The translations under genes and the position numbers were made by a program. 64,000 nucleotides of DNA, from positions 1 through 64,000 of the forward strand of contig JAUIHI010000012.1 in the NCBI GenBank assembly GCA_030432295.1. The letters are read 5' to 3'. The number at the start of each line of letters is the position of its first letter. The first letter of the stretch is position 1. Below the pieces are notes generated by a model, which was given only the letters and a program-made list of their open reading frames with translations, was not told the DNA's origin and did no database searches. This DNA comes from Anaerolineae bacterium. GTDB lineage: Bacteria; Chloroflexota; Anaerolineae; Caldilineales; Caldilineaceae. Shown here piece by piece: positions 11,113-62,434 of the stretch.

Positions 11113-11130
11113 CTTTTCGTCCAATAATTT

Positions 11131-12437: not shown

Positions 12438-12503
12438 TATTGGGTATTGGATATTTCGTAGGGATGTTCTGGGGCATCCCTACGAAATATCCAATACCCA
12501 ATA
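12438..12503. repeat. Perfect 29-bp palindrome, family C
   Basis: The 29-base left arm begins TATTGGGTATTGGATATTTC (12438-12466) and pairs exactly with 12475-12503 around an 8-base loop. It is the longest perfect stem in the window. It carries the core also found at 4064-4124 and 41320-41335, and lies upstream of the ArsA gene on the minus strand. Confidence 0.85.
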
Positions 12504-12504
12504 T

Positions 12505-13179
12505 CTATTTCTTCTTCAACAACCAGGCCGCCATCAGCCCGGCCAGGGCTACACCGACGACTGTACCGACCGCGCCACTCCGGTCCAAGCCAAACCAGCC
12601 CCGAATCTGCCACCAGAAATAGGGAATGCTGGCCCAATAGGTGACAGCCAGGGGCCAGCGGTGACCGGTCTGGATCGCATATTTGCCCATCTGGTTTTGG
12701 GGACTCCAGACGGCCAGATAGAATCTGCCGCCCACAAGGGTGCGGGTGTCGATGACCGGGCCGGGATAGTAGCGGGCGCGGGTCAGCACATCTTCTATGG
12801 GTTGCAGCAGTTTGCTGGGCGGCGGTGCGACAATCGCGCTGTAGCCTTTGGGCAGTTCAATCGGCAGTTGCTGGGCGTCCGCGCTATAGGGCAGGCTCTG
12901 TCCAATCAGGGCAAAAGCAGGCACGGCTGTCCCCCCTCGGGTCAGCACAGGCACAAGCAGTTGGGCGCGCAGCCGCTCCCCTGCCGCGCAATCGGCCCGG
13001 TAAATGTGTACCTGGCCGGGTGTGCCCAGATGATTGAAGATCAGCCGTTTTTTGGCAAAATCGTCCAGGGGCAGTCCATTCGCCAGCTTTCCCCCAGGCA
13101 GACCGGGAAAAATCGGACGACTGCCCGCCAGATCAGCGCCGGGAATCGTTGGCAAATTGGTTTGGGATAGAGAAGACAC
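12505..13179 (-). CDS. Hypothetical C-terminally membrane-anchored protein
   Basis: A 224-aa protein of no family that I recognise. Residues 1-170 are predicted soluble and beta-rich (PGQVHIYRADCAAGERLRAQ). A Trp/Tyr-rich segment (YWASIPYFWWQIRGWFG) and a hydrophobic span (AVGTVVGVALAGLMAAWLL) ending in KKK follow, which fits a C-terminal anchor. There is no N-terminal signal. The GTG at 13179 is preferred because AGGAG lies 5 bases upstream. It precedes ArsA on the same strand. Get3-like ATPases act on tail-anchored proteins, so the pairing is suggestive, but that is inference only. Confidence 0.6.
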   Translation of the reverse strand: MSSLSQTNLPTIPGADLAGSRPIFPGLPGGKLANGLPLDDFAKKRLIFNHLGTPGQVHIYRADCAAGERLRAQLLVPVLTRGGTAVPAFALIGQSLPYSADAQQLPIELPKGYSAIVAPPPSKLLQPIEDVLTRARYYPGPVIDTRTLVGGRFYLAVWSPQNQMGKYAIQTGHRWPLAVTYWASIPYFWWQIRGWFGLDRSGAVGTVVGVALAGLMAAWLLKKK

Positions 13180-13398
13180 AGGCACTCCTGAGCAAAAGTA
13201 GGGACAGGGATTATCGCGGGTTTTGTGGGTTCTGACAGATGGCCTTACCCTTCCAGTGTAGCAGCCGTCGCAGAGAGCGTCAATCCGTACATCATCTAAT
13301 CATCCCACCATCCAGCGCCGTTTGACCGACCGCCCCCAATGCAGTAGGATAGCAGCAGCGATTGTCTGTCTTTCTACCCACCCGCAGGCGGCAAACCC

Positions 13399-14364
13399 AT
13401 GACCGAAACGGCCCCCGTCACACTTTCGATTATTGTTCCCATCTACAACGAAGAGGCGGTCATCCCGGAACTCTACAAGCGGATCACCGGCGTAATGGAC
13501 GAAATCGGCGTAAGCTGGGAGATGGTCTGCATCAACGACGGTAGCCGGGATCGTTCCGTCGAAATGCTGCTCGACCTGCGCCGGGCCGATTCCCGCATCA
13601 AACTGCTCGATTTCAGCCGCAACTTCGGCCATCAGCTTGCCATCACCGCCGGGCTGGACTACGCGGAGGGCGACGCGGTGGTCATCATCGACGCTGACCT
13701 ACAAGACCCGCCGGAAGTCATCGCCGAGATGCTGGCCCGCTGGCGGGAGGGCTACGAAGTGGTCTATGCGGTGCGGGCCGAGCGCCAGGGCGAATCCTTT
13801 TTCAAGCTGTGGACCGCCAATGCCTTCTACCGTCTGCTACGCTCGATTACCGATGTGGACATCCCCCTGGACGCGGGCGACTTTCGCCTGATGGACCGCA
13901 AAGTTGTGCAGACAATGCGCAGCCTACGCGAGAACCACCGCTTTATGCGCGGGCTGAGCAGTTGGGTGGGCTACAGGCAGATCGGTGTGGAATATCACCG
14001 GGCCGAGCGCTTTGCCGGGGAGACGAAATATCCCCTGCGCAAGATGCTGCGCCTGACCACCGACGCCATCACCAGCTTCAGCTATGTGCCACTACGCATG
14101 GCGACCTGGTTTGGTTTCTCTTTGGCCCTCATCAGCCTCGTCGGCGTGGCTATTACCGTCGGTCTGCGTCTCTCCGGCAACAACGCCTTCTACGGTCAGG
14201 CGACGACGCTTGTGGCCGTGCTTTTCCTCGGCGGCATTCAGCTCATTTTTCTGGGCATTCTGGGCGAATATCTGGGCCGCATCTACGACGAAGTGAAGGA
14301 ACGCCCGCTCTACATTGTCGCCCGCGCCCACGGCTTCGAGGAAACGGACAATTCAAAATCTTGA
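13399..14364 (+). CDS. Family 2 glycosyltransferase, polyprenyl-phosphate type
   Basis: A 321-aa GT-A enzyme of the dolichol/undecaprenyl-phosphate sugar transferase group (GtrB/ArnC-like). Residues 9-60 give the nucleotide-binding start [11 protein letters not shown] and INDGSRDRS. The metal-binding DAD is at 98-100, followed by LQDPP. Two transmembrane helices lie in the C-terminal region (about 238-260 and 272-294). The predicted role is transfer of a sugar from its nucleotide carrier to a membrane polyprenyl phosphate for envelope glycans. A family A palindrome follows. Confidence 0.88.
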
Positions 14365-14434
14365 CCACAAAGACACAAAGGCACAAAGAAGAGCAAGAAA
14401 TGTCTCTTTGTTTTTCCTTCGTGGCTTTGTGGTG
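14361..14434. repeat. Intergenic palindrome, CACAAAG family (family A)
   Basis: Left arm TTGACCACAAAGACACAAAG, right arm TTCGTGGCTTTGTGGTGA. It begins at the stop of the GT2 gene and ends 14 bases before the Nudix start. Confidence 0.75.
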
Positions 14435-14447
14435 ATACAGGAGTGAT

Positions 14448-14993
14448 ATGAAAGCGTCAGAGCAGGGGGTGGGCAAGGGAAAAGCGGGCCGCTATCAGGT
14501 GGTGCCGCGCACGCTGATTTTTGTGACGAGCGTCAACCCGGCCACGGGCAGCGAGGAAATGCTGCTGATCCAAGGCGCACCGGACAAACGGCTGTGGGCC
14601 AACAAATTCAACGGCATCGGTGGCCACATCGAAGCGGGCGAAGACTTTCTCGCCGCGGCCCACCGGGAGCTGGCCGAAGAGACTGGGCTGCGGGATGTGG
14701 ACCTGACTCTACGCGGGCTGATCAACATCGCCGTCCACCCGGATGGGGACGCGCCCAGCGGCGTAGGTGTACTCGTCTTCACCGGCCACACCGCCAGCCG
14801 GGAGATCGCAGCCAGCAGCGAAGGCGGGCTGCATTGGGTTCCTGTGGCGGATTTGGCTTCCCTGCCGCTGGTGGATGATCTCTACCAACTGCTGCCCCTC
14901 CTGCGCGACAGCCAGGCGGTAATCTACGGTCACTACCAGCCCAACGACAGCGGAAAAATGGTCTACCATTTTCATCAGCAAGCCAGAGCGTAA
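14448..14993 (+). CDS. Nudix hydrolase
   Basis: A 181-aa protein with a complete Nudix box: Gly59, Glu65 and REx2EExG (Arg73-Gly80) in GHIEAGEDFLAAAHRELAEE. These residues bind the metal that drives hydrolysis of nucleoside-diphosphate-linked substrates. It resembles 8-oxo-dGTP-type hydrolases in layout, but the substrate is not evident. It lies in a plus-strand series with GT2 and AcpS, separated by palindromic repeats. Confidence 0.85.
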   Translation: MKASEQGVGKGKAGRYQVVPRTLIFVTSVNPATGSEEMLLIQGAPDKRLWANKFNGIGGHIEAGEDFLAAAHRELAEETGLRDVDLTLRGLINIAVHPDGDAPSGVGVLVFTGHTASREIAASSEGGLHWVPVADLASLPLVDDLYQLLPLLRDSQAVIYGHYQPNDSGKMVYHFHQQARA

Positions 14994-15078
14994 CGCAGAT
15001 TACGCAGAAACCGCAGATTGCGCAGAAAAAAATCTGCTTTTATCCGTCTGTTCCGCCCAATCCGCGTTCTATTCTTTA
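14990..15078. repeat. Intergenic palindrome, GATTACGCAGA family (family B)
   Basis: The left arm has tandem units, TAACGCAGATTACGCAGAAA, then CCGCAGATTGCGCAG. The right arm is degraded (CCGCCCAATCCGCGTT). It starts on the stop codon of the Nudix gene and ends 11 bases before acpS. Confidence 0.65.
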
Positions 15079-15088
15079 ACGGTCCCCA

Positions 15089-15469
15089 ATGATTCTCCGA
15101 ACCGGCGTTGACCTCATCGAAATCGAACGAATGGGCCAGGCCATCGAGCGCCACGGCGAACGCTTTTTGAAGCGGGTCTTCACTCCGGGCGAGCTGGCCC
15201 ACTGCGCGGGACGGGTGGAATCCCTGGCCGCCCGTTTTGCGGCCAAAGAGGCCGGGGCCAAAGCCCTGCAAACCGGCATCTGGCGGCAGGGCATCGGCTG
15301 GACCGATCTGGAAGTGGTGCGGGACGAAACCAGCGGCGCACCTTCTCTGATTCTGCACAACGCGGCAGCCCAGTTGGCCGCGGCCCACGGCCTGACCGAA
15401 TGGTCGGTCAGCCTCAGCCACGACCGCACCCACGCCATCGCCTTCGTCGTGGCAATGGGAAGTCAATAA
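15089..15469 (+). CDS. acpS: Holo-[acyl-carrier-protein] synthase
   Basis: A 126-aa protein of the usual AcpS length. It transfers the 4'-phosphopantetheine arm from CoA to acyl carrier protein. The two metal-ligand motifs are present: GVDLIEIERM with Asp8, and RFAAKEA with Glu54, followed by KAL. A half copy of a CACAAAG repeat follows directly. Confidence 0.92.
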   Translation: MILRTGVDLIEIERMGQAIERHGERFLKRVFTPGELAHCAGRVESLAARFAAKEAGAKALQTGIWRQGIGWTDLEVVRDETSGAPSLILHNAAAQLAAAHGLTEWSVSLSHDRTHAIAFVVAMGSQ

Positions 15470-15497
15470 AACCACAAAGGCACAAAGACACAAAGGA
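15467..15497. repeat. Single arm of a CACAAAG repeat (family A)
   Basis: AAACCACAAAGGCACAAAGA followed by CACAAAGGAAAAG, with no matching right arm. It covers the acpS stop codon region, and its last unit supplies AAAGGA as ribosome binding site for the next gene. Confidence 0.7.
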
Positions 15498-15505
15498 AAA
15501 GCAAG

Positions 15506-16171
15506 ATGACTGCTGGTCCGTTTGCCCCCCTCAATTTCCAGCGCCTGCCCGAAGCTGAAATGCAGGAAAGGGCCGCCGCCTTCCACCAACAGTTGCGCGG
15601 CCGCCGCTCTGTGCGGGACTATTCTGACCGGGCTGTACCGATGGATGTGATCGAAAATTGCCTGCTGGCCGCGGGCAGCGCACCCAGCGGGGCAAACAAA
15701 CAGCCCTGGCACTTTGCGGTGGTGACGGACCCGGCGGTGAAACAGCGCATCCGGGCAGCCGCCGAGGAGGAGGAGCGGGCCTTCTACACCCAGCGGGCCT
15801 CGGAGGAGTGGCTCAATGATTTGGCTCCCCTGGGAACCGACGCCAACAAACCCTTTCTGGAGATTGCGCCCTGTCTGATCGCCATTTTCTCCCAGAGCTA
15901 CCAGCTGGACAACGAAGGCCAGAAGCATCTCAACTACTACGTCACCGAATCTGTGGGGATTGCCACCGGTTTTCTCATCGCCGCCCTACACAACGCGGGG
16001 CTGGCTTGCCTGACCCACACCCCCAGTCCTATGCGCTTTCTCAACGAAATTTTGGGACGGCCCAGCAACGAACGCCCCTTTCTCCTGCTGGTGGTCGGCT
16101 ACCCCACCGACGACGCCCAGGTTCCGGTCATTGCAAAAAAGCCGTTGTCCGACATCGCGACATTCATCTAA
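15506..16171 (+). CDS. Nitroreductase-fold flavoprotein, iodotyrosine-deiodinase-like
   Basis: A 221-aa FMN enzyme of the nitroreductase superfamily. The FMN-binding start is [13 protein letters not shown] (residues 33-45), followed by [12 protein letters not shown] (60-70) and the C-terminal VGYP. Glu90, Tyr94 and Lys115 have the spacing (+4, +21) of the Glu-Tyr-Lys set that grips the amino-acid zwitterion in iodotyrosine deiodinases. This suggests reductive dehalogenation of a halotyrosine, or a reaction on a similar aromatic amino acid. The AAAGGA ribosome binding site comes from the preceding repeat arm. Confidence 0.8.
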
Positions 16172-16204
16172 ACCCACATTTGCGCCCCACAGAAAGAGAC
16201 CCAA

Positions 16205-17698
<1,494 letters not shown>

Positions 17699-17709
17699 AT
17701 TGTCTTTTT

Positions 17710-17780
17710 AACGCAGAGGCGCGGAGACGGGGAGGCGCAGAGAAAATCAGATTCTCTGCGCCTCCCCGTCTCCGCGTTAC
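17710..17780. repeat. Palindrome with 24-bp perfect stem, family A-like
   Basis: GCGGAGACGGGGAGGCGCAG begins a 24-base arm (17721-17744) matched exactly at 17752-17775. Outer arms of AACGCAGAGGC and GCGTTAC extend it. It sits between the convergent GH51 (+) and dehydratase (-) genes and is a likely two-way terminator, although there is no long T-run. Confidence 0.75.
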
Positions 17781-17786
17781 GCTTTT

Positions 17787-18932
17787 CTACCCCGCCACCA
17801 CAACCTTCGACGAATCGGCCGCGCTGGCGCTGCCCCGCCGGTATTTCTCCACCAGCGCCGGGTTCAGGCGATGGCCCAGCCCCGGCTCTTGGGAGAGGAC
17901 CAGATGGCCGTCTTCGATCTTCTCTGCCGGTTGCAGCAGATCGGCCCGCCAATCCACCTCGCCCCAGGCGTATTCCAGAATGTAGAAATTAGGCCAGGTG
18001 GCCGCTACCTGCGCCGTCGCCGCGGTGGAAAGGGGACCTGCCGGGTTGTGGGGTGCGACCTGCACCTGATGCATCCGGGCCGCGGCCGCGATTTCGCTCA
18101 ATTCCAGAATGCCGCCGCAATGCTTCACATCGGGCATAATCACATCCACACAGCGCTGGGCCAGGAAGGGGCGGAAACCCTCCACGCCGAAGACACTCTC
18201 GGCGGAAGCAGTGGGCATGGGCACGGACGCGGTGATGGCAGCCAGCATCTCCGGGTGGTCGTGGGAGACCGGCTCCTCGTACCAGAAAAGATTGCAGTCG
18301 GCCAACTCCTGTCCCACAATTTTGGCGACTGACGCCTCCATCCGGCTGTGACAGTCCACGGCCAACTCGACTTCATCACCGATGGCCTTGCGCACAGCCC
18401 GCACCCGGGCCACCCCCATCTGCCAGTCGGCCAGGGGACCCGTGGCATGGCGGTAGGGATGGCGCATTTCGTCGAAGGGGGCCAGTTTGATGGCCGTAAA
18501 GCCCTGGTCCGCGGCCTGGGCCGCTGCGGTGGCAAAGCCCTCCGGTGTGCGGTTGTTGACGTGGCGGTTGATGTTGGCGTACAAGCGCAGTCGATCCCGC
18601 ACAGCGCCGCCAAAGAGGGTATGCACGGGCACGCCCAGGTGCTGGCCGAGGATGTCCCACAACGCCTGTTCCAGCCCGCTCAGCGCGGTGTTCCAGACCC
18701 GGCCGCCCTCTTTCTGGCGCAGGCTCTGGCGGATGCCGGCGATCTCCAGGGGATTTTTGCCCACCAGCCGCTGGGCAAAGACGCCGAGCGTCGCCACGCA
18801 GAGGGCATCGTTCATATTGTGGCTGGCCTCGCCGATGCCGGTGATGCCCGCGTCCGTATGCACAAGGACGTGCAGCCAGTCGCCCCGGCGGTTGACTTGC
18901 AGGACGAGGGGTTCGATGGATGTAATTTGCAT
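17787..18932 (-). CDS. Enolase-superfamily acid-sugar dehydratase (galactonate-dehydratase-like)
   Basis: A 381-aa protein with the N-terminal cap and barrel of the mandelate racemase/dehydratase group. The metal ligands are Asp193, Glu219 and Glu245. His195 in AVDCHS and His295 in APHNPAG match the general acid/base pair of D-galactonate-type dehydratases. The expected reaction is dehydration of an aldonic acid to a 2-keto-3-deoxy acid. The start at 18932 lies 2 bp after the SMP-30 gene stop, so lactonase and dehydratase are one operon and act in sequence. Confidence 0.88.
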   Translation of the reverse strand: MQITSIEPLVLQVNRRGDWLHVLVHTDAGITGIGEASHNMNDALCVATLGVFAQRLVGKNPLEIAGIRQSLRQKEGGRVWNTALSGLEQALWDILGQHLGVPVHTLFGGAVRDRLRLYANINRHVNNRTPEGFATAAAQAADQGFTAIKLAPFDEMRHPYRHATGPLADWQMGVARVRAVRKAIGDEVELAVDCHSRMEASVAKIVGQELADCNLFWYEEPVSHDHPEMLAAITASVPMPTASAESVFGVEGFRPFLAQRCVDVIMPDVKHCGGILELSEIAAAARMHQVQVAPHNPAGPLSTAATAQVAATWPNFYILEYAWGEVDWRADLLQPAEKIEDGHLVLSQEPGLGHRLNPALVEKYRRGSASAADSSKVVVAG

Positions 18933-18934
18933 GG

Positions 18935-19813
18935 CTATGCACCCACCGCTTTCCCCTGGCGATCTGTCTTGGCCCGCAGCAGATGACCTTTGATGCTGGT
19001 GACGTAGAGATCGGTCAATTCTGGCCCGCCAAAGGTGCAGTTGGTGGGGCGCTGGCAGGGCAGGGGATGGGTTTCCAGCACCCGGCCATTGGGGGCGAAG
19101 ACGTAGATCATCCCGCCTGGCCCGCTGACTTCCCAGCCTGCGGTGGCGACGATATTGCCGTCGCTGTCCAGTGTCATGCCGTCGATGCCCCGGTGGGGAT
19201 AGAAGTTGTGGAGCACTTCGTATTGCCCTACACTGCCGTCCGGGTTGACGGGATAGGCCCGCAGTTCCCGTAGTTGGCCGTCGCCGTATTTGGACTGGGC
19301 CACGTAAAGGGTCTTCTCGTCGTGGGAGAGGAGCAGGCCGTTGGGAGAGGTGGTGTCGTAAGTGACGCGCACACACTGCCAGCTTCCGTCGGCCTGAGGA
19401 TCCAGCCGCAAGACCGATTCGTGATCCAATTCCATATCGTCCCGGAAGTCGCCATAGCGAGGGTCGGTGAACCAGACGCGGCCCTGGCTGTCCACGGCCA
19501 GATCGTTGGGGCTGTTGAGCCGCTTGCCGCCATAATTGTCACCGAGGACGACGGTTTCGCCGCCGTCTGCTGGGTAGTGGACCATTCGCCGTCCGCCGCC
19601 CTCACAGGCGAAGAGACGGCCCTGGCTATCCAGCATCAGCCCGTTGGCGTTGTTCGTGCCCTCACGCCAGACGCTGATTTGGCCGCTGACCGGATCGTAG
19701 CGTAGGATTCGACTGTTGGGAATGTTGGTGTAGAGCAGACCACTGCCGTCCCAGACAGGGCCTTCGGTCAGGCCGTCCGTCGGTTCGGCAAGGATTTCAA
19801 ATGTCCAGGACAT
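18935..19813 (-). CDS. SMP-30/gluconolactonase family sugar lactonase
   Basis: A 292-aa six-bladed propeller protein. Typical segments are 'LTEGPVWDGSGLLYTNI' near the N-terminus, NSPNDLAVDSQGRVWFTD in the middle and SPNGLLLSHDEKTLYV. Family members use Glu, Asn and Asp ligands for a divalent metal and open sugar lactones. The start at 19813 has AGGAG 7 bases upstream. With the adjacent dehydratase it forms two successive steps of oxidative sugar breakdown. Confidence 0.87.
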   Translation of the reverse strand: MSWTFEILAEPTDGLTEGPVWDGSGLLYTNIPNSRILRYDPVSGQISVWREGTNNANGLMLDSQGRLFACEGGGRRMVHYPADGGETVVLGDNYGGKRLNSPNDLAVDSQGRVWFTDPRYGDFRDDMELDHESVLRLDPQADGSWQCVRVTYDTTSPNGLLLSHDEKTLYVAQSKYGDGQLRELRAYPVNPDGSVGQYEVLHNFYPHRGIDGMTLDSDGNIVATAGWEVSGPGGMIYVFAPNGRVLETHPLPCQRPTNCTFGGPELTDLYVTSIKGHLLRAKTDRQGKAVGA

Positions 19814-38620: not shown

Positions 38621-39757
38621 TCAACAGACTTCCACTGTCAACTTCTTCACCCGCGCCTCGTCCCAGACCGCGCCCCAGCCCGGTGCATCCTCCGGCGGGG
38701 CGATGTGGCCGTCTTCGATCAGCGGCGCGTTGAGCAGACCCCACGCCTCGCCCATCTGCCGGTTGAGGGTGTTGTCCCTGCCAAAATATTCGTAGTAGTC
38801 GGTGTTGTCGATGCAACAGCCCACGTGGGCGTGGACCAGTCCGAAGAGTCCGCCCTGGCCGTTGAGTTCCACATTCGTGCCGTGGAGTTCGGCCAGGTGG
38901 GCCAGTTTCAGCACTTGGGTCGTGCCAAAGGTGGCCCGCGCCCGCAGCCGGTCCGTCGCGCCCTGGATCAGCCACTGGGCAGTGATGTCCATATCGTGAA
39001 AGAGCCGCTCGGTCGCCATCACCGGCATCGTCAGCGCTGCGCACAATTCCTGATACTGGTTCATCTTCTGCTCGTGCATCGGCTCTTCCAGCCATACGAA
39101 GTCGAGTTCCTCCATCACCCGTCCGGTTTCGATGGCTTCACGCAGACTGTAGGAGCAGACCGGGTCGCTGATCAGCGCGTAGTCGTCGCCCACTTCCCGG
39201 CGCACCGCGTGATAGATGGGGATGTCGGCTTTGCCCCCTTTGTAGCTGTGGAATTTGTAGGCTGTCACGCCGTAGTCCCGCCCGCCGTCGATGTGGGCCA
39301 GATAGCCTGCGGTGTCCATATCCCCGCCGGTGAGGTAGACGGGCAGGCGATCCCGCACCCGGCCAATCAGCGCGTGGACAGGCAGCCCGGCCACCTGCCC
39401 GGCGATGTCCCACAGGCAGTTGTCGAACTCGCCAAACCAGCCCGGCTCCTGGTAGACCCAGCGGGTCCCCTTCTGCAGCATCTGAAAGAGACGTTCCCGG
39501 TGGAAGGGGTTTTCACCGATGACGTGGCGGCGCAGAATCTCCGCCTGGGCCGGGGTGATGGAAGTGGGAGCCATCCGCCCCACAACGCCCGCGTCGGTGT
39601 GGACTTCGATGATGTGGAGCCGGGCGGGCTGGTCGCCGGGCAAGGCTTTGTGGGTGTATTGGGTGCGGTGCAGACCGGGGACCTGGACCAAACGGTGGCC
39701 GCCCCGTTTCTGTTCAGGGTTTTCGAGAATCAACAATTTTACGTCGGTAATGCGCAT
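38621..39757 (-). CDS. Enolase-superfamily dehydratase/racemase, divergent (starvation-sensing/ManD-like)
   Basis: A 378-aa protein. The catalytic face shows Lys168-Phe-His170 and Lys173 (AYKFHSYKGG), metal ligands Asp198, Glu224 (WLEEPM) and Glu250 (MATER). The end of the barrel reads LNGQGGLFGLVHAHVGCC in place of the usual His-Pro/Gly strand. Substrate and stereochemistry cannot be predicted; mannonate or gluconate type acids are likely. GGAGG stands 5 bases before the ATG at 39757. Confidence 0.82.
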   Translation of the reverse strand: MRITDVKLLILENPEQKRGGHRLVQVPGLHRTQYTHKALPGDQPARLHIIEVHTDAGVVGRMAPTSITPAQAEILRRHVIGENPFHRERLFQMLQKGTRWVYQEPGWFGEFDNCLWDIAGQVAGLPVHALIGRVRDRLPVYLTGGDMDTAGYLAHIDGGRDYGVTAYKFHSYKGGKADIPIYHAVRREVGDDYALISDPVCSYSLREAIETGRVMEELDFVWLEEPMHEQKMNQYQELCAALTMPVMATERLFHDMDITAQWLIQGATDRLRARATFGTTQVLKLAHLAELHGTNVELNGQGGLFGLVHAHVGCCIDNTDYYEYFGRDNTLNRQMGEAWGLLNAPLIEDGHIAPPEDAPGWGAVWDEARVKKLTVEVC

Positions 39758-39901
39758 GGGTTCCTCCAGGGGGATGAAGAAAGTAAATGGAACGTCCCCA
39801 ATCATACCCGTCACGCTACCGAACCGCAAGCGGCCAAAAACCCGGGCCGCAGCGGGAATGGAGAGCTTCGGCTCTACTGTCCAGGCTGACCGGCACTCAA
39901 T

Positions 39902-43310: not shown

Positions 43311-44495
43311 CTACCGCGCGTGGGGATAATGACCTGCTGGGTGCTTCAACAATTCCGCTTCAATCAAATCCGAACCCAGCCCAGGCCGGGTGGGCAGGAG
43401 CAGATGGCCTTCCTCGATTGTAAAGGGGTGGGTCATTAGATCGTCGCGCCAGGGCGCGTCGTCCACGTCCAGTTCGTGGATGTAGAAGTTGGGAATGGTG
43501 GCGCAGACATTGGCCGAGACAAGCGTATTGATGGGACTGTGACAATTATGCGGCGCGACCAGCACGTCGTAGGCGTGGGCCAAATCGCAGATTTTCTTGC
43601 CCAGCGTAATCCCGTTCCAAGCGAAGTCCGGCATAATCACATCCTGGGCGTGGCGTTCCAAAAAGGGCCGATAGCCGTGGGTTCCAAAGAGGCTCTCGCC
43701 GTGGCAGATGGTCGTCATCGTCGCCTCCCGAATCGTGCGCAGGGCGTCCGGGTCGAGGGTCTCCGTCTCCAGCCACATCAGATTGTAGGGTTCCAGAGCC
43801 TGGGCCAGTTTGATGGCCCCGCCTAGTTTGAAGGTGAAGGCTACGTCCAACGCAATGCCCACATCCGACCCCAGGGCTTCGCGAAAAGTACCAACAATCG
43901 CCTCAGCGCTGCGGATGGTGGCGGGCGGACAATCCCCGGCCCGGTTCCAGAAGCGGTTGAGTACGGGCTGGGCGTCGGCCCGATCTGCGAGCGGGAAGAG
44001 ATTGGTTTTGATGGCGGTATAGCCCCGTTCCAATACTTCATCGGCCAGACGGCGCAGATCGTCGGTGGTCTCTACCGGAGGCAGGCCGAGGGTCTGGGCG
44101 TGGGCCGCGCGCACGCTGCCGCAGTGGGACCAGTAGAGGCGCAGGCGATCCCGCATTTTGCCGCCCAACAGTTGCCAGACCGGCACACCCAACTCTTTGC
44201 CCCGGATGTCCCAGAGGGCCGAGTCGATGCCTGACATCGCCTTATAGGCAATACCCCCTATATGCCGCACGGAAGCCGCAGCCAAATCCCACCAGATCGC
44301 CTCGGCCTGCATAGGGTCCCGGCCAATCACCCACTCGCTATAGCGCTCGACCGTCGCAGCTACCGGGCCGGGGGACCCCCAGTCCGTGCAGTCGCCCCAG
44401 CCGACAAGTCCGGGCTGGTCGGTTTCGACTTTCACGAATGTCCAAGGACGGAAGCCGCCGTCCACAAGAAAGGTTTTGATCGCGGTGATTTTCAT
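43311..44495 (-). CDS. Enolase-superfamily dehydratase with unusual LETE ligand motif
   Basis: A 394-aa protein. Lys163 (AIKTNLFP), Asp217 (ALDVAF), Glu243 in WLETETL where most relatives have LEEP, Glu267 (CHGESLFG) and His316 (APHNCHSPI) outline a working active site. The predicted reaction is aldonate dehydration. The ATG at 44495 has AGAGG upstream. The gene ends 16 bp from the convergent retropepsin gene, the only convergent junction in the window with no palindrome. Confidence 0.83.
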   Translation of the reverse strand: MKITAIKTFLVDGGFRPWTFVKVETDQPGLVGWGDCTDWGSPGPVAATVERYSEWVIGRDPMQAEAIWWDLAAASVRHIGGIAYKAMSGIDSALWDIRGKELGVPVWQLLGGKMRDRLRLYWSHCGSVRAAHAQTLGLPPVETTDDLRRLADEVLERGYTAIKTNLFPLADRADAQPVLNRFWNRAGDCPPATIRSAEAIVGTFREALGSDVGIALDVAFTFKLGGAIKLAQALEPYNLMWLETETLDPDALRTIREATMTTICHGESLFGTHGYRPFLERHAQDVIMPDFAWNGITLGKKICDLAHAYDVLVAPHNCHSPINTLVSANVCATIPNFYIHELDVDDAPWRDDLMTHPFTIEEGHLLLPTRPGLGSDLIEAELLKHPAGHYPHAR

Positions 44496-44551
44496 GGAAT
44501 GCCTCTTTCGCTGAGGAAAAGTCAGAGAAATGCGCAACAATCTTCGTTCAG

Positions 44552-45721: not shown

Positions 45722-46879
45722 TCAAAGCGCGCTCTTCTGCCGGGCTACACTCAGCCGCGCCACCGCCGCCTCGTCGATCTCCACCCCCAGCCCTGGACCT
45801 GTAGGCACAGCCAAAAAGCCGTCCACCTGATCGAAAGGCGTGGCGATGCCTTCCCGGATGGGGCTGGGCGTGCGGTCGAACTCCATCACCGGCTCCTGCT
45901 GATAGGGAAGCGGGTTGCGGGCGGGCGGGCAGGGCGGGATCGTCGAGGCCACGTGCAGGCTGGCCGCAATCATCACCGGTGAACCCCAGACATGCGGGTT
46001 GCACAGAATACCAAAACTGTTCGCCATCTGGGCCACCCGGTGCAGTTCGGTGACGCCGCCGACGATTACCACATCGGGCTGGACGATGTCCACGGCCCGC
46101 CGCCCGATAAAGTCTTTGGCCTCGAAGCGGGTGCGCAGATTCTCGCCCCCGGCAATCGCCATCGGGAGCGCGTTTTTCACCTGTAAATAGCCCTCCACAT
46201 CCTTAGCGCCGACCGGCTCCTCGAACCAGAAGACCTCCAGATTGTCCATCTCCCGGCCAATGCGGATGGCGGTGGTGGCGTTGTAGGCCTGGTTGGCGTC
46301 CACCATCAGAAAGATGTCCGGGCCGATGACCTCCCGAATGGCGGCCACCCGCTCCACATCTTCCCGCACGGAGAGGCCGCCGACTTTCGTCTTCATCCCC
46401 TGAAAGCCCAACTCCACATACATCCGGGCCTCGTCCAGCAGCCGGTCGGGAAATTCGCCCTCTGTGTAATAGAGGCCGGTGGCGTAGACTGCGATTTTGT
46501 CCCGCACTTTGCCGCCCAGCAGCGCGGAGACGGGCAGCCCCGCGGCTTTGCCCGCGATGTCCCACAGGGCAATGTCCACCGCGCTGATGGCGCTGCCCCC
46601 GTAGCCACCGGCCAGGCCAGCGTTGTAGAGGCTGTGATACATCCGCTCCCACAGGCCGTTGCGCTGCATCGGGTCTGCGCCCAACAGAAGGGGCGCAAAG
46701 CCGTCGTGGAGGAGTGCGGCTGTCGGGCTGCTCAGCCCCTCGCCCCAGCCCACCAGTCCGTCGTCGGTGGTGATCTTCACCAGCCCGCAGGCTCGCTTTT
46801 CGGTCCAGCCCTGAGACCAGCCAAAGGGGATATGGATGGGGGCTTCCAGCAGAAAACTTTCGATGGATGTGATACGCAT
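45722..46879 (-). CDS. Mandelate racemase subgroup enolase-superfamily protein
   Basis: A 385-aa protein with the full MR-type active site: KxK at Lys163/Lys165 (GMKTKVGG), metal ligands Asp194 (MVDANQAYN), Glu220 (WFEEPV) and Glu246, and His296 (NPHVWGS). The two-base arrangement fits racemisation or dehydration of an acid sugar. The start at 46879 gives the usual MRITSIES N-terminus. It is the most upstream gene of this minus-strand run. Confidence 0.87.
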   Translation of the reverse strand: MRITSIESFLLEAPIHIPFGWSQGWTEKRACGLVKITTDDGLVGWGEGLSSPTAALLHDGFAPLLLGADPMQRNGLWERMYHSLYNAGLAGGYGGSAISAVDIALWDIAGKAAGLPVSALLGGKVRDKIAVYATGLYYTEGEFPDRLLDEARMYVELGFQGMKTKVGGLSVREDVERVAAIREVIGPDIFLMVDANQAYNATTAIRIGREMDNLEVFWFEEPVGAKDVEGYLQVKNALPMAIAGGENLRTRFEAKDFIGRRAVDIVQPDVVIVGGVTELHRVAQMANSFGILCNPHVWGSPVMIAASLHVASTIPPCPPARNPLPYQQEPVMEFDRTPSPIREGIATPFDQVDGFLAVPTGPGLGVEIDEAAVARLSVARQKSAL

Positions 46880-47009
46880 CAAAGGGTCCTCACGGGTGGG
46901 AGATGGAAGTTGAGGAAGGAGAGACAAAATAGTAGACTATAATGCGCTGTCCATCTCTATTCTATACGGCACAGCCCTATCGAGCAATTGCGCTGAAAGG
47001 AAGCCAGCA

Positions 47010-49609: not shown

Positions 49610-50017
49610 GGGGATGATCGGCTTCGACGGGGCAGGAAGAACTGAGATTGCAAGCCGTAGAGTGTCGACTACGTTAAAAAGGCGCAAACACTACAAATGC
49701 CAAAACAACTGGCAAGGCTTTTAACTTCGGATTCGCCAACGCTGCTCCTGTAGCGATGGCCGCCTAAGTTAGGCCATAACCTCCCTCGAGGGGTTACGGT
49801 CGTTTCAGTGGGGCCAGCAGGCTGAAACGTAACCGACATATACTGTGAGCTGCGGTAGCCCGACGCCGATGACGGCTGCCTAAGACTTTCGGCTAGTTGG
49901 GGCTGAACTCTCGTTGCCCAGAGGTCCCCCAGCGAACCACCAAAGTGAGCAACTACGCTTGTAGACGTCTCAGGTCAAATGTTTCGGACGCGGGTTCGAT
50001 TCCCGCCATCTCCACCA
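49610..50017 (+). ncRNA. ssrA: Transfer-messenger RNA
   Basis: A 408-base tmRNA. The 5' end GGGGATGATCGGCTTCGACG and the 3' end TTCGATTCCCGCCATCTCCACCA (T arm, acceptor and encoded CCA; shown in two parts: TTCGATTCCCGCC, ATCTCCACCA) form the tRNA-like domain. The tag frame runs from GCA at 49684 to TAA at 49765-49767. It has 27 sense codons, starting Ala-Asn-Thr-Thr-Asn and ending Pro-Val-Ala-Met-Ala-Ala. SmpB is not in the window. It frees stalled ribosomes and tags the peptide for proteolysis. Confidence 0.95.
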
Positions 50018-50058: not shown

Positions 50059-50283
50059 CATACCGTAGGCAGTGCTATACTACCCCCAGCTTCTCGCCCC
50101 ATTTTGGTCGGAAAATTGCTTCTGCTGTGGCATCCCCTGCCACACAAAGGGTCGATGGTATTTCTCCGTATTTCTCACACTTGAAACAGTCAGCTACCTG
50201 TACAAGAATAGGCAGGGGGTGGCCTGCGTTATGTGAGCGCCACACCAGACCCAGAGACGATAGCTGATTCCAGGGAGGTTGGC

Positions 50284-51336
50284 ATGTCTATACAAGCAAG
50301 CAGAACGATCAGCGAACAGGCATCTGGCCTGGCGGAGCAGGTGGTGGAGAATATCTATCGCCGCCAGCGGGAGCGTTGGGGCTCCTATGGGGAGGAAGGC
50401 CGCCAAAAGAGTGTGCGGGACACAGTCTATCATCTGCGCTATCTGGCAGAGGCGCTGGCCGCGGACGACGCTGCCCTCTACACAGAGTATCTGGCCTGGG
50501 TCAAAGTTCTATTTACCGGGCTGAATTTCTCTCCGAGTGTGTTGCCCGATACTCTGGCCGAAATGCATACGGTCATTTCCGAATCGGTCCCGGAGGATGT
50601 ACGGGCCGAAATTCTCGAAGTCCTGGAGAGTGGACGACAGGAGGTGGAGGCTGCGCCTGTTCTGCCCCCCTCCTTCCTCGACGGCGATGGCGAACTGGAC
50701 CAACTGGCCAGAGAGTTTCTGGCTTCCTTGCTTGATGGAAATCGACGTCGGGCCAGCGAGATGATTCTGGCGGCAGTCCAGGGCGGTGTCACAGTAAAAG
50801 AAATCTACGCCCAAGTATTCGAGCGCACCCAGCGGGAAGTGGGTCGCCTGTGGCAGATCAACAGCATCAGTGTAGCCCAGGAGCATTTCTGTACAGCCGC
50901 CACCCAAATGGTCATGTCCCAACTCTACCCCTATATTTTCACCGGCCAGCGCACAGGGCGGCGGATGGTGATGGCCTGTGTGGGCGGCGAACTGCACGAG
51001 ATCGGGGCGCGGATGGTGGCGGACTTCTTTGAGATGGAGGGCTGGGACACCTATTTTGTGGGTGCGAATATGCCAGCGAAGAGCGTACTACAATCGGTGG
51101 ACGAACTCCAGGCGGATGTATTGGCAATTTCTGCTACAATGACATATCACGTCGGTCAGGTTGCGGAGATGATCCAGGAACTGCGTAAAACGCGTAGCAA
51201 ACAGCAGACCCGGGTGCTTGTGGGGGGCTATCCATTCAATCTTGCCCCCCAATTGTGGCAGAAAGTGGGGGCCGATGGCTGCGCCCGTGACGCGGCCACG
51301 GCCCTACAGGAAGCAGAGAGAGTGATGGCAGAATGA
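50284..51336 (+). CDS. B12-binding sensor protein with CarH-type photosensory signature, no DNA-binding domain
   Basis: A 350-aa cytosolic protein. Residues 1-130 are helical with no MerR helix-turn-helix. A B12-cap bundle follows with Trp190, Glu200 and His201 (LWQINSISVAQEHF), exactly the Wx9EH spacing of CarH light sensors. The cobalamin domain starts at about 225, with VGGELHEIGARMV; His238 in ExHxxG replaces the usual DxHxxG and is the predicted lower ligand. The ATG at 50284 has GGGAGG upstream. Its stop overlaps the histidine kinase start (ATGA), so it is likely the kinase's sensor partner. Confidence 0.8.
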   Translation: MSIQASRTISEQASGLAEQVVENIYRRQRERWGSYGEEGRQKSVRDTVYHLRYLAEALAADDAALYTEYLAWVKVLFTGLNFSPSVLPDTLAEMHTVISESVPEDVRAEILEVLESGRQEVEAAPVLPPSFLDGDGELDQLAREFLASLLDGNRRRASEMILAAVQGGVTVKEIYAQVFERTQREVGRLWQINSISVAQEHFCTAATQMVMSQLYPYIFTGQRTGRRMVMACVGGELHEIGARMVADFFEMEGWDTYFVGANMPAKSVLQSVDELQADVLAISATMTYHVGQVAEMIQELRKTRSKQQTRVLVGGYPFNLAPQLWQKVGADGCARDAATALQEAERVMAE

Positions 51337-52505
51337 AGACAGAAAACGGGCTGGGATTGGTTCTCGACGCAGAGGGCAATATCACAGAAATCATAAGCGA
51401 CCCGCTCGGCCTGGGCGCCGCCGTCACAATCGGGATGCCCTTTGCGCGCCTGGCTGCCAGGGGTTCATTGGCCAAGGCCCTTTCCTTCGTCACACAGATC
51501 CAGCAAAAGGGTGTAGCTTTCGATTGGGAATTCAGTCTCGCCGTGGAGCAGCCCCGCTCGCTTCACTTTACCGGAGGCAAAATCGGAGATCGGGTGCTGG
51601 TGGTGGCCGCTCTGGATGGCGCTGTAGCCCTGCGCTATTACCAAGAGATGATGAACGTCAACAACGAGCAGACCAATGCGTTGCGCCAGGTCTATGGAGG
51701 GATGAAACGGGACAGAAATCTGTACGATGAGGTAAGCCGCCTCAACAACGAGTTGGTGGATATGCAGCGGGAACTGGCCAAGAAGAACGCTCAACTTACA
51801 GAGATTAACCAGGAGAAGAATCGTCTTTTGGGTATCGCCGCCCACGACCTGCGCAACCCTCTGCATGCAATTTTGATGCTGAGTCAATTTCTGCTGGATG
51901 AGGGTCCTGAAGGGGAGCAGAAGGAATTTCTCGAAGAAATTCGTTCCAGCACCACTTTTATGGCCCGCCTCGTCGACGATCTGCTGGATGTAGCCAAGAT
52001 CGAATCCGGCCAGGTCGCACTGGAACTTGCCCCGTGCGACATCAATGATCTGCTGAAAGCCACTATCAAGCGACAGAATCTACTGGCCTCTCGCAAGCAG
52101 ATTGAGATATCTTTTGTGGGTCAACCCCTCCCCGCTGCCCAGTTAGACATTTCCAAGATTGAACAGGTTCTCAACAATCTCATCGGCAACGCAGTCAAAT
52201 TCTCTTTGCCCGGTGGACGTGTCGAAGTGCGCCTTCATCAAGCCCGCGAACGCTTTGAAATTGCGGTGCAGGACTGGGGCACGGGCATCCCGCCGGAAAT
52301 TCAGAACCGGTTATTTACAGCATTTGCCAAAGGGCAGACAGGAACCGCTGGCGAGAAAAGCACCGGCCTTGGACTGCTGATTGTCAAACGGATTGTCGAG
52401 GTGCATGGCGGCGACATCCACCTGGAGAGTACGTCGGAGGTTGGTTCCACATTCACTGTTTCGCTCCCTTTTGAACCGACGCCTACGGAGGAGATCGGTG
52501 GATGA
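51333..52505 (+). CDS. Cytosolic sensor histidine kinase
   Basis: A 390-aa protein without membrane spans. An N-terminal PAS-like part (residues about 1-105), a coiled coil (110-165), then the dimerisation domain with His171 (AAHDLRNPL). The ATPase domain has the N box (NNLIGNAVKFS), DWGTGIP and GLGLLIVKRIV. There is no receiver or response regulator next to it. It overlaps the B12-binding gene by four bases, so the input is probably that protein. Confidence 0.88.
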   Translation: MKTENGLGLVLDAEGNITEIISDPLGLGAAVTIGMPFARLAARGSLAKALSFVTQIQQKGVAFDWEFSLAVEQPRSLHFTGGKIGDRVLVVAALDGAVALRYYQEMMNVNNEQTNALRQVYGGMKRDRNLYDEVSRLNNELVDMQRELAKKNAQLTEINQEKNRLLGIAAHDLRNPLHAILMLSQFLLDEGPEGEQKEFLEEIRSSTTFMARLVDDLLDVAKIESGQVALELAPCDINDLLKATIKRQNLLASRKQIEISFVGQPLPAAQLDISKIEQVLNNLIGNAVKFSLPGGRVEVRLHQARERFEIAVQDWGTGIPPEIQNRLFTAFAKGQTGTAGEKSTGLGLLIVKRIVEVHGGDIHLESTSEVGSTFTVSLPFEPTPTEEIGG

Positions 52506-52636: not shown

Positions 52637-54418
52637 ATGGCTGGTCAAGAACAGATCGAGATCGTCTCTCCCCACGGCCAAATCCGTTTCTACACACTGG
52701 ACCCCTCTCTGGGCGTGGTCAATATCGGCCAGCACCCGGACAACGACATTGTGTTGGACGGGCGGGACGTGCGCCCCTTCCACGGGCTGATCGACTACCG
52801 ACGCCATCCCTACCACTACGCATCCCTGGCAGACGGCGGCGGCTTTGACGAGGAGCGGCCCTTTTCCCAGTGGGATCGACTGCGCATTGGCGAACACGAA
52901 CTGGTGTTGATAGACGGCGAACGGATGGGCCAATCCCAGGCGCCAGCGCACGCGGCCGCGGCTGAAACCGCCAGTCTGCCGCCTGCTGTGCCCTTGCCCG
53001 CAGACAGCGAAGCCGCGCCCCGCTGGCGTGCCAGACCAGGCCAGACCGTGCGCCACAACCTCACCATCCAGAACAGCGGGGACAACCCGGCCACCTTTCT
53101 GATCAGTGCCGGTGGCGTGCCGGAGGAGTGGCTTTTTCTCTCCCAGCAGGCAGTCACCCTGCAACCGGGCGGTCAGGCCGGGGTCCAATTGGCCATCACC
53201 CCGCCCACCGGCCCCGACACCCAGCCCGGCGTCTACCCTCTCACCTGGCAGATGGAATCCCCTGAATATCCGGGCTGGACACAGAGCGAGCCGCTCTACC
53301 TCCAGATCGACGCCGCGCCCCTTGTCCAGATGAGCAGGCCAGAGCCGAGCCACATCGTCTCCCGCCCTTTTCGCCGGGCTGGCCGTGGCCACATCACCGT
53401 TGCCAATTGGGGCAATATCCCCGCCCAGCTCTACCTGAGCGGTCGGGAACGGCGGGACGACTGCGCGGTGCAGATCGATCCCGTATTGGACGAGAGTAGC
53501 ATCGAAGAGGGCCTGGAATGGGAACGCCCCCAGGCCGATGGAGAGGTCTACCCTTCTGATCTTTTGCTCCATCTGCCCCCCGGCCACCTGGCCCACCTGC
53601 GCCTGACAATTACCCCCCTCAGTGGGCGGCGCTTCGGCCTGGGGTCTATCCACCACCGCTTCACCGTCAGCGCCCAATCGCCAGAAGGGACCTTTGCCCC
53701 CCAGACCACTGGCGGCACTTTTGAGAGTCGTCCGGCCATTCGCGTGGGTTTTCTGTTGCTGCTGCTCTTTCTTCTGGCCCTCTCCACACTCTACTTTTTT
53801 CGGGGCGATATCTCTGCCAGCTCTGGCCGGGCCAGGGCAGCGCCACTGGTAATCCAAGAGACAGTCACAATTCCCCGCCTGGCCTGGATGGCCCCCAGCG
53901 CCGAGACTGTGCCCCGCCCTCTGCTGGCAACCGGTGGAGCCAAAGCCAGGCCATCTGGCGAAATGACCTACGCGGAAATATTCCAGGAGATCGGCGCACT
54001 CTACGGCCAGGACTGGCGGCAGTTGGCCTCCCACGCCCAGCGGGAGAGCCGAATGAATCCCAACGCCCAGGGCGCTGCCGGAGAATACGGGTTGATGCAG
54101 ATACTCCCATCCACCTGGAACGAGTGGGCGCCTCTGGTCCAAGTGAGCGATCCCTGGGACCCCTACAGCAATGTGCTGGTGGGCGCGGCCTACTACTCCT
54201 ACATCCACAGCTATTTCAGCGATCTGGGCTACACCGACCCCAAATGGTCCCTGGCTGCCTACAATTGGGGACCAGAACGCACGCTGGGGCTGCTGGACAG
54301 CGGCAGCGGCTGGTTCTCCGTGCCCCTAACCCAGCGGATGTACGTGGCGGATATTCTGATCGGCGTGGAAAACGCCCAGGCACTGGTGGACGAAGCAGAA
54401 GTGCGCTACCCACGTTAA
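52637..54418 (+). CDS. FHA-like, Ig-like and lytic transglycosylase membrane protein
   Basis: A 593-aa single-pass protein with an unusual domain order. An FHA-like fold occupies residues about 5-95 (NIGQHPDNDIVLDGRDVRPF, His49), but the phosphothreonine-binding Arg is Gln and the Ser is Pro. Two Ig-like/NEW3-type beta domains follow (about 125-350). The membrane helix is 369-387. A transglycosylase-like SLT domain closes it, with Glu469 (HAQRES) and GEYGLMQILPSTW (481-493). The topology would put FHA and Ig parts inside and the muramidase part outside. A family A palindrome follows. Confidence 0.8.
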   Translation: MAGQEQIEIVSPHGQIRFYTLDPSLGVVNIGQHPDNDIVLDGRDVRPFHGLIDYRRHPYHYASLADGGGFDEERPFSQWDRLRIGEHELVLIDGERMGQSQAPAHAAAAETASLPPAVPLPADSEAAPRWRARPGQTVRHNLTIQNSGDNPATFLISAGGVPEEWLFLSQQAVTLQPGGQAGVQLAITPPTGPDTQPGVYPLTWQMESPEYPGWTQSEPLYLQIDAAPLVQMSRPEPSHIVSRPFRRAGRGHITVANWGNIPAQLYLSGRERRDDCAVQIDPVLDESSIEEGLEWERPQADGEVYPSDLLLHLPPGHLAHLRLTITPLSGRRFGLGSIHHRFTVSAQSPEGTFAPQTTGGTFESRPAIRVGFLLLLLFLLALSTLYFFRGDISASSGRARAAPLVIQETVTIPRLAWMAPSAETVPRPLLATGGAKARPSGEMTYAEIFQEIGALYGQDWRQLASHAQRESRMNPNAQGAAGEYGLMQILPSTWNEWAPLVQVSDPWDPYSNVLVGAAYYSYIHSYFSDLGYTDPKWSLAAYNWGPERTLGLLDSGSGWFSVPLTQRMYVADILIGVENAQALVDEAEVRYPR

Positions 54419-61232: not shown

Positions 61233-62363
61233 TCAATGGTCAATAGCCGCGCCGTCGTCCGGATGGAACAAGCCCGGATGACGACGGAAAATACCGATTT
61301 TGTCTTGCAGCGCCTCCTCGTCGATCTCAATGCCCAGACCGGGCGCGGTGGGCAGGTCGATATAGCCATCTTTGACAACGAAAGGCTGTTTTAGGTAGCC
61401 CTCGCCCAGATGGACCTGCTCCTGACAGAGAAAGTTGGGAATGGATGCGTCCAGTTGGATGCCCGCGGCCAGGGAAATCGGCCCCAGCGGGCAGTGGGGT
61501 GCGACCAGCGCATAGTGGCTTTCCGCCATCCCTGCGATCAGCCGCCCCTCAAAGATACCCCCAGCGTGGCTGATGTCGGGCTGGAGAATGGAAGCAGCGC
61601 CTTTCTCCAAAAGCTCCCGAAAGCCCCATTTGGTGAAGATACGTTCACCCGCAGCAATGGGCAGATGGGTTTTACGGGCCAGGTCGGCCAGCACATCCAC
61701 ATTCTGGCATTGCACAGGCTCTTCAATAAACATCGGCTGAAAGGGTTCAAGCGCTTTGATGAGCGTGCCGGCCATCTGGGGGCTGACTGCGCCGTGGAAG
61801 TCGATGGCGATGTCCACGTCCCGGCCTGCACCCTCCCGCAGCGCAGCAAAACGATCCACCACAGCGTCCACAAAGGCGGGGGTCTCGATGAAGCGATGGG
61901 CACTCTGGCCTGTGGCTGTGCGCGGCCCCGTCTTGAAAGCACGAAAGCCCTCGGCTTTGCGCGCCTGCACATAGGCAATCTGTTCGTCCAGAGTATTGCC
62001 CCGGATGTGGGAATAGACTTTGATGCGATCGCGCAGGGGACCACCGAAGAGTTTGTAGACAGGCACGCCCAGTGCCTTGCCCGCGATATCCCAAAGGGCG
62101 TGTTCAATGCCGGAAAGGGCGCTGGTGAGGACGGGGCCGCCCCGATAGAAGGCGTGCTTGTAGATGGACTGCCAGTGGTGCATCACCCGGGTCGGGTCTT
62201 TGCCCAGCAGATAGGGTTCCACTTCGGCGATAGCCTGGGCCACCGTATGCACGCGGTTTTCCAGCGTCGGCTCGCCCCACCCGACAATGCCTTCATCGGT
62301 GTGGATTTTCAAGAAGAGCCAACGAGGAGCAACCTGGAAAGTTTCAACGCGGGAGATGCGCAT
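61233..62363 (-). CDS. Galactonate-dehydratase-type enolase-superfamily enzyme (DgoD-like)
   Basis: A 376-aa enzyme with metal ligands Asp188, Glu214 (FIEEPV) and Glu240 (AAGER), and acid/base residues His190 (IDFHGAVS) and His290 in APHCPLGPI, the DgoD signature. It dehydrates an aldonic acid such as D-galactonate to a 2-keto-3-deoxy acid. It is the first gene of the ABC/FAH/amidohydrolase operon, behind an operator-promoter at 62435-62467. The ATG at 62363 is preferred over TTG 62369. Confidence 0.88.
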   Translation of the reverse strand: MRISRVETFQVAPRWLFLKIHTDEGIVGWGEPTLENRVHTVAQAIAEVEPYLLGKDPTRVMHHWQSIYKHAFYRGGPVLTSALSGIEHALWDIAGKALGVPVYKLFGGPLRDRIKVYSHIRGNTLDEQIAYVQARKAEGFRAFKTGPRTATGQSAHRFIETPAFVDAVVDRFAALREGAGRDVDIAIDFHGAVSPQMAGTLIKALEPFQPMFIEEPVQCQNVDVLADLARKTHLPIAAGERIFTKWGFRELLEKGAASILQPDISHAGGIFEGRLIAGMAESHYALVAPHCPLGPISLAAGIQLDASIPNFLCQEQVHLGEGYLKQPFVVKDGYIDLPTAPGLGIEIDEEALQDKIGIFRRHPGLFHPDDGAAIDH

Positions 62364-62434
62364 AAACAACTCGTCAGATAGTTTAGATTTGCTGCAATAA
62401 TAGATTGAGGTAGGGGTAGAATCAAGTTACTTAG

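What the first reader, a model, noticed from the sequence alone, without database searches (positions are those of the whole stretch)
50284..52505. CarH-type B12 light-sensing signature fused to no DNA-binding domain and coupled to a histidine kinase
The protein has Wx9EH (Trp190, Glu200, His201) in the B12-cap bundle and ExHxxG in the cobalamin domain. CarH photoreceptors use the same Trp/Glu/His set to sense AdoCbl photolysis, but they carry a MerR DNA-binding domain. Here it is replaced by an unassigned helical N-terminus, and the stop overlaps (ATGA) the start of a soluble histidine kinase with its own PAS-like part. This suggests a light- or B12-dependent two-component input rather than direct repression. 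No response regulator lies next to it.
Basis: partly seen in the sequence, partly recalled or inferred. Interest (0 to 1): 0.7.

Follow-up and report, generated by a model that had tools for sequence, protein, structure and literature searches.

The report
Photocobilin light sensor with partner kinase
Two overlapping genes encode a probable vitamin-B12 light sensor, whose supposedly unassigned front end is a bilin-pocket globin (so it is a 'photocobilin'), and a soluble histidine kinase; this pairing recurs in bacteria and archaea, which points to a widespread but still untested B12-based two-component system.

Summary
In detail: W190-x9-E200-H201 and H238-x-x-G241 are present and invariant in 77 relatives, the genes overlap by ATGA, and no response regulator lies on this contig. 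One correction: residues 1-120 are not unassigned. They are a phycobilisome-like photoglobin (Pfam PF00502 above cut-off) whose D46 and W72 align with biliverdin-contacting Asp270 and Trp296 of photocobilin SasPcob. The protein is a photocobilin with an N-terminal globin, an arrangement already noted in the literature, not a CarH that lost its DNA-binding domain. The kinase link is real: in 65 of 76 relatives a kinase follows immediately, and 73 of 77 have a homologous PAS/coiled-coil partner. That segment persists without a kinase in Hymenobacteraceae and before other kinase types; its divergence tracks the photocobilin (r=0.61) better than its own kinase domain (r=0.25). Heme oxygenase adjoins the photocobilin in four loci, but none was found in the window's genome. 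Best reading: AdoCbl photolysis changes the photocobilin, which signals through the partner's PAS/coiled coil to an unlinked response regulator. Light as the stimulus is inferred. Known receptor kind; the two-gene module was not found in the papers readable here.

The parts
50272..50279 (+). Shine-Dalgarno-like AGGGAGGT before the ATG at 50284
   Evidence: sequence read; relatives' alignments begin at this ATG
50284..51336 (+). photocobilin-type B12 protein, 350 aa
   Evidence: translation; Pfam PF00502 + PF02607 + PF02310; best PDB matches are the photocobilins 8J2W/8J2X/8J2Y; AlphaFold2 pLDDT 93.4
50287..50625 (+). N-terminal photoglobin (phycobilisome-like) domain, aa 2-114; D46 and W72 correspond to biliverdin-contacting Asp270 and Trp296 of SasPcob; the usual bilin-linking Cys is Ser43
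   Evidence: PF00502 30.9 bits, cut-off 22.2; D46 in 72/72 and W72 in 71/72 relatives; profile alignment to 8J2X; residue roles from PMC10979010
50707..50925 (+). B12-binding_2 four-helix cap, aa 142-214
   Evidence: PF02607 52.3 bits
50851..50886 (+). W190-x9-E200-H201, AdoCbl-adenosyl pocket motif
   Evidence: 77/77 relatives identical; absent from corrinoid methyltransferase-type proteins
50962..51312 (+). B12-binding Rossmann domain, aa 227-343
   Evidence: PF02310 85.4 bits
50989..51006 (+). E236-x-H238-x-x-G241; H238 is the presumed lower axial cobalt ligand (His108 of SasPcob)
   Evidence: 77/77 for H238 and G241; alignment to 8J2X
51333..51336 (+). ATGA overlap of stop and start
   Evidence: sequence read; 19 relatives show the same -4 spacing
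51333..52505 (+). soluble sensor histidine kinase, 390 aa
   Evidence: PF00512 + PF02518; complete catalytic boxes
51348..51611 (+). PAS-fold domain of the partner, aa 6-93, no Pfam match
   Evidence: AlphaFold2 secondary structure; long Foldseek match to LOV-histidine kinases 4gcz and 8a6x; tracks the B12 protein better than its own kinase domain
51618..51827 (+). coiled coil with conserved LSRLNNELVxxQRELAKKNAELE, aa 96-165
   Evidence: alignments A3/A4; part of it retained in Paenibacillus (no PAS) and in Hymenobacteraceae (no kinase)
51816..52010 (+). HisKA domain, phospho-accepting H171 at 51843-51845
   Evidence: PF00512 63.9 bits
52146..52475 (+). HATPase_c ATP-binding domain
   Evidence: PF02518 99.4 bits

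Best explanation
The first gene encodes a stand-alone photocobilin: a photoglobin domain followed by a CarH-type AdoCbl-binding domain. In the dark AdoCbl is held by H238 below and by W190 and E200/H201 above; green light breaks the Co-C bond and rearranges the E200/H201 helix. A tetrapyrrole in the globin pocket (D46, W72) would widen the spectral range where one is available. The change is passed by protein contact to the PAS/coiled-coil part of the co-translated second protein, and through its coiled coil to the HisKA/HATPase core. The kinase then phosphorylates a response regulator encoded elsewhere in the genome. Shown by sequence: the domains, the invariant pocket residues, the conserved gene pair, the intact kinase. 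Inferred: AdoCbl and bilin binding, light as the signal, direct docking, direction of the kinase response.
For: Domains and motifs. The profile matches photocobilins 8J2W/8J2X in both domains, 145 bits in all, with D46 on Asp270 and W72 on Trp296. Proteins with the same signature were light-responsive when tested (PMC11796333), and photocobilin control of a diguanylate cyclase, fused or added in trans, is published (PMC10979010). Kinase next door in 65/76 relatives and PAS/coiled-coil partner in 73/77. PAS divergence follows the B12 protein, r=0.61, against r=0.25 with its own kinase domain, in 500 of 500 subsamples. Heme oxygenase adjoins the photocobilin in L021, L024, L026 and L032. The window's genome has a PduO-type adenosyltransferase to make AdoCbl and no second copy of the partner domain.
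Against: No heme oxygenase was found in the window's genome and PF01126 hits in only 3 of 50 carriers, so biliverdin is probably not made in most hosts; but two Rufibacter genomes with phytochromes also gave no hit, so the search misses some. Many carriers come from sediments or belong to anaerobic groups (titles), which is odd for a light sensor. Only one of six searched congeners also has the gene, so the function is accessory. No complex could be modelled.
Confidence: 0.66

Rival explanations
1. B12-status sensor: the protein reports AdoCbl availability (bound versus apo), and light sensitivity is incidental. The kinase would adjust B12-dependent metabolism or uptake.
For: Carriers include many anaerobic groups and sediment organisms (titles); heme oxygenase is rare among them; AdoCbl binding alone changes the activity of a photocobilin cyclase (PMC10979010).
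Against: The adenosyl-pocket residues W190, E200 and H201 are invariant, as in light-responsive proteins; the bilin-contact residues are kept too; heme oxygenase adjoins the gene in four loci; no cobalamin riboswitch anywhere in the window.
Confidence: 0.2
2. Corrinoid carrier protein of a methyltransferase that happens to sit beside a kinase.
For: NCBIfam corrinoid-protein models match the B12 domains, but far below their cut-offs.
Against: No methyltransferase gene recognised beside it; W-x9-EH is absent from the corrinoid proteins compared; a globin is present; the neighbour is a kinase across phyla.
Confidence: 0.03
3. The globin has lost chromophore binding and is a structural lid on the corrin, so this is a B12-only green-light sensor rather than a two-chromophore one (a variant of the best explanation, compatible with it).
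For: No heme oxygenase or phytochrome found in the window's genome; Ser at the Cys position; AbDPcob binds biliverdin weakly yet still works (PMC10979010); W72 matches Trp296, which also hydrogen-bonds the corrin.
Against: D46 is invariant in 72/72 although its homologue's described role is bilin contact (PMC10979010); AbPcob, which binds biliverdin poorly, has lost exactly that Asp.
Confidence: 0.35

Closest known systems
Photocobilins SasPcob (8J2W/8J2X) and AbDPcob (8J2Y)
   Same: B12 four-helix cap plus Rossmann fold with W-x9-EH and E/DxH, and a phycobilisome-like globin; as in SasPcob, Asp (D46=Asp270) and Trp (W72=Trp296) in the bilin pocket and no linking Cys
   Different: Globin is N-terminal rather than C-terminal; the apparent output is a separately encoded PAS/coiled-coil histidine kinase rather than a fused cyclase or an unknown partner. 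N- and C-terminal placements are both mentioned in PMC10979010.
Photoglobins (Schneider et al. 2022, cited in PMC10151467 and PMC10979010)
   Same: Globin-B12 fusions; the CXQD motif given for photoglobins (PMC10151467) is seen in several relatives here at positions 43-46
   Different: The window has SVRD (no Cys). The original paper is not held here, so whether it already lists the kinase pairing could not be checked.
CarH/LitR
   Same: AdoCbl pocket with Trp, Glu, His and the lower His ligand
   Different: No MerR DNA-binding domain; an extra globin; a kinase as neighbour and probable output
LOV and phytochrome histidine kinases
   Same: Photosensor feeding a coiled coil and HisKA/HATPase core; Foldseek aligns the kinase model over its length with LOV-kinases
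   Different: The chromophore-binding sensor is a separate polypeptide here; the kinase's PAS has no known chromophore

Membership tests
Photocobilin | B12-binding_2 plus B12-binding domains with W-x9-EH and E/DxH | tested here: met
Photocobilin | Phycobilisome-like globin fused to the B12 module, with the bilin-contact Asp and Trp | tested here: met
   PF00502 above cut-off; D46=Asp270 and W72=Trp296 in the profile alignment
Photocobilin | Globin C-terminal to the B12 domain, as in the solved structures | tested here: not met
   Globin is N-terminal; PMC10979010 includes both orders, so this is not a defining feature
Photocobilin | No bilin-linking cysteine | tested here: met
   S43 in the window; 16 of 71 relatives have Cys there
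Photocobilin | Binds AdoCbl and biliverdin; light cleaves Co-C | not testable with these tools
   needs purified protein
Photocobilin | Host can make biliverdin (supporting, not defining) | tested here: inconclusive
   no heme oxygenase found in this genome, but the search gave none in phytochrome-bearing Rufibacter either; adjacent heme oxygenase in four relatives
CarH/LitR | MerR DNA-binding domain | tested here: not met
   no such domain
CarH/LitR | AdoCbl pocket Trp/Glu/His | tested here: met
Corrinoid methyltransferase protein | Methyltransferase partner nearby; cap motif of corrinoid proteins instead of W-x9-EH | tested here: not met
HisKA-type histidine kinase | H, N, G1 and G2 boxes intact | tested here: met
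   H171, N286, D314-G316-G318 and G345-G347 invariant in 42 rows; PF00512, PF02518
Two-component system | Cognate response regulator | tested here: inconclusive
   none on the contig; 19 relatives have a receiver-domain gene next in line

The most novel reading that the evidence does not exclude
A cross-phylum split photoreceptor system in which the photocobilin's dedicated partner is a PAS/coiled-coil adaptor rather than a kinase, so that different outputs (HisKA, HisKA_2, hybrid kinases, or none) have been placed behind the same receptor. In hosts without heme oxygenase the globin pocket would hold another tetrapyrrole or serve only the corrin.
Probability: 0.35. Interest if true: 0.75.

Novelty: new variant of a known kind. 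Interest (0 to 1): 0.56.

Why it matters
For stand-alone photocobilins PMC10979010 calls the function unclear; its test used the cyclase domain of another photocobilin. Here a partner is predicted by gene order and co-divergence in dozens of species, including named Paenibacillus, Rufibacter, Adhaeribacter and Methanolobus strains, which makes the question directly testable. It would add B12 to the chromophores that feed two-component systems and raise the question of why anaerobes keep such a receptor.

Tried and rejected
MerR replacement by an unknown domain: rejected, the N-terminus is a photoglobin. Corrinoid methyltransferase protein: rejected on motif and neighbourhood. Cobalamin riboswitch control: none; only a tmRNA and a tRNA in the window. 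A nearby response regulator: none on the contig. A search for the partner domain elsewhere in the genome gave only the window copy. Alignment A1 was made by mistake and not used. Schneider 2022 and Cheng 2016 are not held. The first version of the neighbourhood script stopped half-way; one search is the complete one. The distance correlation is not a proof of contact: the genes are co-inherited as an operon, kinase distances may be noisier, and no unlinked control gene was available.

Full report
What is there. Gene 1 (50284-51336, +) encodes 350 aa and gene 2 (51333-52505, +) 390 aa; they overlap as ATGA. Pfam gives gene 1 three domains, all above their cut-offs: Phycobilisome PF00502 (aa 2-114), B12-binding_2 PF02607 (142-214) and B12-binding PF02310 (227-343); gene 2 has HisKA and HATPase_c.

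The motifs are under strong constraint. One scan of 84,980 species genomes with the protein returned 80 loci, with 34-60% identity in the 60 full-length members aligned. In 77 readable relatives G187, L189, W190, E200, H201, H238, G241, R243 and others are invariant. The published light-responsive signature GxxW, EH, GxxH, GxxxP (PMC11796333) is complete. As a control, the corrinoid proteins of the same genome and of related genomes align over the same stretch but mostly read F instead of W and VPEM or VPEV instead of AQEH. L104, from another genome of the same family, does carry W-x9-EH.

The N-terminus is a photoglobin. The single sequence matches PF00502 at 30.9 bits (cut-off 22.2), and 33 of 61 aligned members match at E 0.01 or better. 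A profile of the family finds the photocobilins 8J2W/8J2X/8J2Y first, with two separate matched stretches, the B12 module and the globin, in swapped order. In that alignment chain index plus five gives the published SasPcob numbering: W190=Trp61, E200/H201=Glu71/His72, H238=His108, D46=Asp270, W72=Trp296. PMC10979010 assigns Asp270 and Trp296 to biliverdin contact, and Trp296 also to the corrin. D46 is identical in 72 of 72 and W72 in 71 of 72 relatives; AbPcob, a poor biliverdin binder, has His at the Asp270 position, as the alignment shows. Position 43, the Cys of phycobiliproteins, is Ser here and Cys in 16 of 71 relatives. PMC10979010 states that photocobilins fall into groups with the B12 domain at either end, so the domain order alone is not new. 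AlphaFold2 gives pLDDT 93.4 with five N-terminal helices, the cap helices and a Rossmann fold. Foldseek matches the B12 part to CarH-type and photocobilin structures; the globin cannot be included in a sequential alignment because of the swap.

The kinase pairing is the main finding. In 65 of 76 relatives with a readable next gene, a histidine kinase follows on the same strand, 51 of them at 10 nt or less or overlapping, 19 with the same 4-nt overlap. Three more were called by their N-terminal part alone. By record titles, many of them MAGs, the loci come from many phyla of Bacteria (Chloroflexota, Desulfobacterota, Bacteroidota, Acidobacteriota, Bacillota, Planctomycetota, Gammaproteobacteria and others) and from Archaea (Lokiarchaeota, Methanolobus). 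The sample was drawn by similarity to gene 1, so the figures describe this subfamily, not all photocobilins.

The constant part of the partner is not the kinase. A profile of residues 6-159 of the partner finds a homologous segment in the neighbour of 73 of 77 loci. In Adhaeribacter and Rufibacter (L038, L048, L057, L071) the neighbour is only 164-200 aa: PAS plus coiled coil, no kinase. In Paenibacillus and a planctomycete the PAS is missing and only the coiled coil (profile positions about 106-162) precedes a hybrid kinase; L076 is HisKA-HATPase-receiver-Hpt. In a methanogen MAG (L075) the same PAS/coiled coil precedes a HisKA_2 kinase. Across 52 pairs, PAS distances correlate with B12-domain distances at r=0.61 (0 of 500 Mantel permutations reach it) and with the kinase domain of the same polypeptide at r=0.25; the difference is positive in 500 of 500 subsamples. 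The simplest reading is that PAS/coiled coil belongs to the receptor and outputs were exchanged behind it. Operon co-inheritance by itself would give correlation with the B12 protein, but does not explain the weaker link to the attached kinase; noisier kinase distances might in part. A search of the window's genome found no second copy of this PAS/coiled coil. Its AlphaFold2 model is a PAS-type fold (strands 6-11, 16-22, 61-69, 76-84, 87-93) followed by long helices, and Foldseek lists LOV-histidine kinases aligned over the whole length.

Chromophore supply. The genome has a PduO-type cobalamin adenosyltransferase. It has no heme oxygenase by the Pfam model or by a profile of three heme oxygenases from carrier genomes, and no phytochrome PHY domain. 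Of 50 carrier genomes only 3 gave a PF01126 hit; two Rufibacter genomes have phytochromes but no hit, so absence is not proven. Against that, in L021, L024 and L026 a heme oxygenase gene lies divergently next to the photocobilin and in L032 upstream on the same strand. Four adjacencies of a gene that is rare in these genomes are hard to ascribe to chance (though L021, L024 and L026 are related and may be one event) and argue that, in those lineages, the N-terminal globin receives a bilin.

Output. None of 74 response-regulator hits in this genome is on contig C58. In 19 relatives a gene with a receiver domain follows the pair; those scanned are receiver alone, receiver-PAS, receiver-HD_5 or receiver-kinase proteins. 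The target in the window organism is unknown.

Distribution. Among 30 related genomes only one, a congener (66% identity), has the full-length protein, again followed by the kinase and then by the same 593-596-aa transglycosylase-like gene. The module is accessory within the genus.

Verdict. The receptor is a known kind. I did not find the conserved two-gene module with an exchangeable output in the papers I could search and read, but the key photoglobin paper is not held, so novelty of the pairing is not certain.

Noticed in passing
window 49610-50017 (+): A tmRNA gene (tag AKTTGKAFNFGFANAAPVAMAA) lies directly upstream of the pair.
   Followed up: partly
window 52637-54418 (+); L109:898-2688 (-): A gene for a 593-aa protein with NPCBM-associated and transglycosylase SLT domains follows the pair here and in the one congener that has the pair.
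   Followed up: partly
L021:5129-5719, L024:5141-5731, L026:5141-5770 (-); L032:4897-5709 (+): Heme oxygenase genes adjacent to the photocobilin, supporting a bilin ligand in those lineages.
   Followed up: yes
L038:7026-7520, L048:7046-7567, L057:6983-7552, L071:6939-7541: Kinase-less PAS/coiled-coil partner proteins in Hymenobacteraceae; their target is unknown and no Pfam model matches the three scanned.
   Followed up: partly
L080:5366-5881, L081:457-957, L083:5917-6465: Photoglobin and B12 domain in separate reading frames: either split genes or frameshifts.
   Followed up: partly
G000 contig C53, about 9667-17956: Four B12-binding-domain hits within about 8 kb of the same genome, apparently a corrinoid or B12-radical gene cluster.
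   Followed up: no
window 17787-19376, 38621-39829, 43311-44540, 45722-46927, 61233-62369 (all -): By eye, five enolase-superfamily (mandelate racemase-like) proteins with sugar-transport genes nearby: probably a sugar-acid catabolic region.
   Followed up: no
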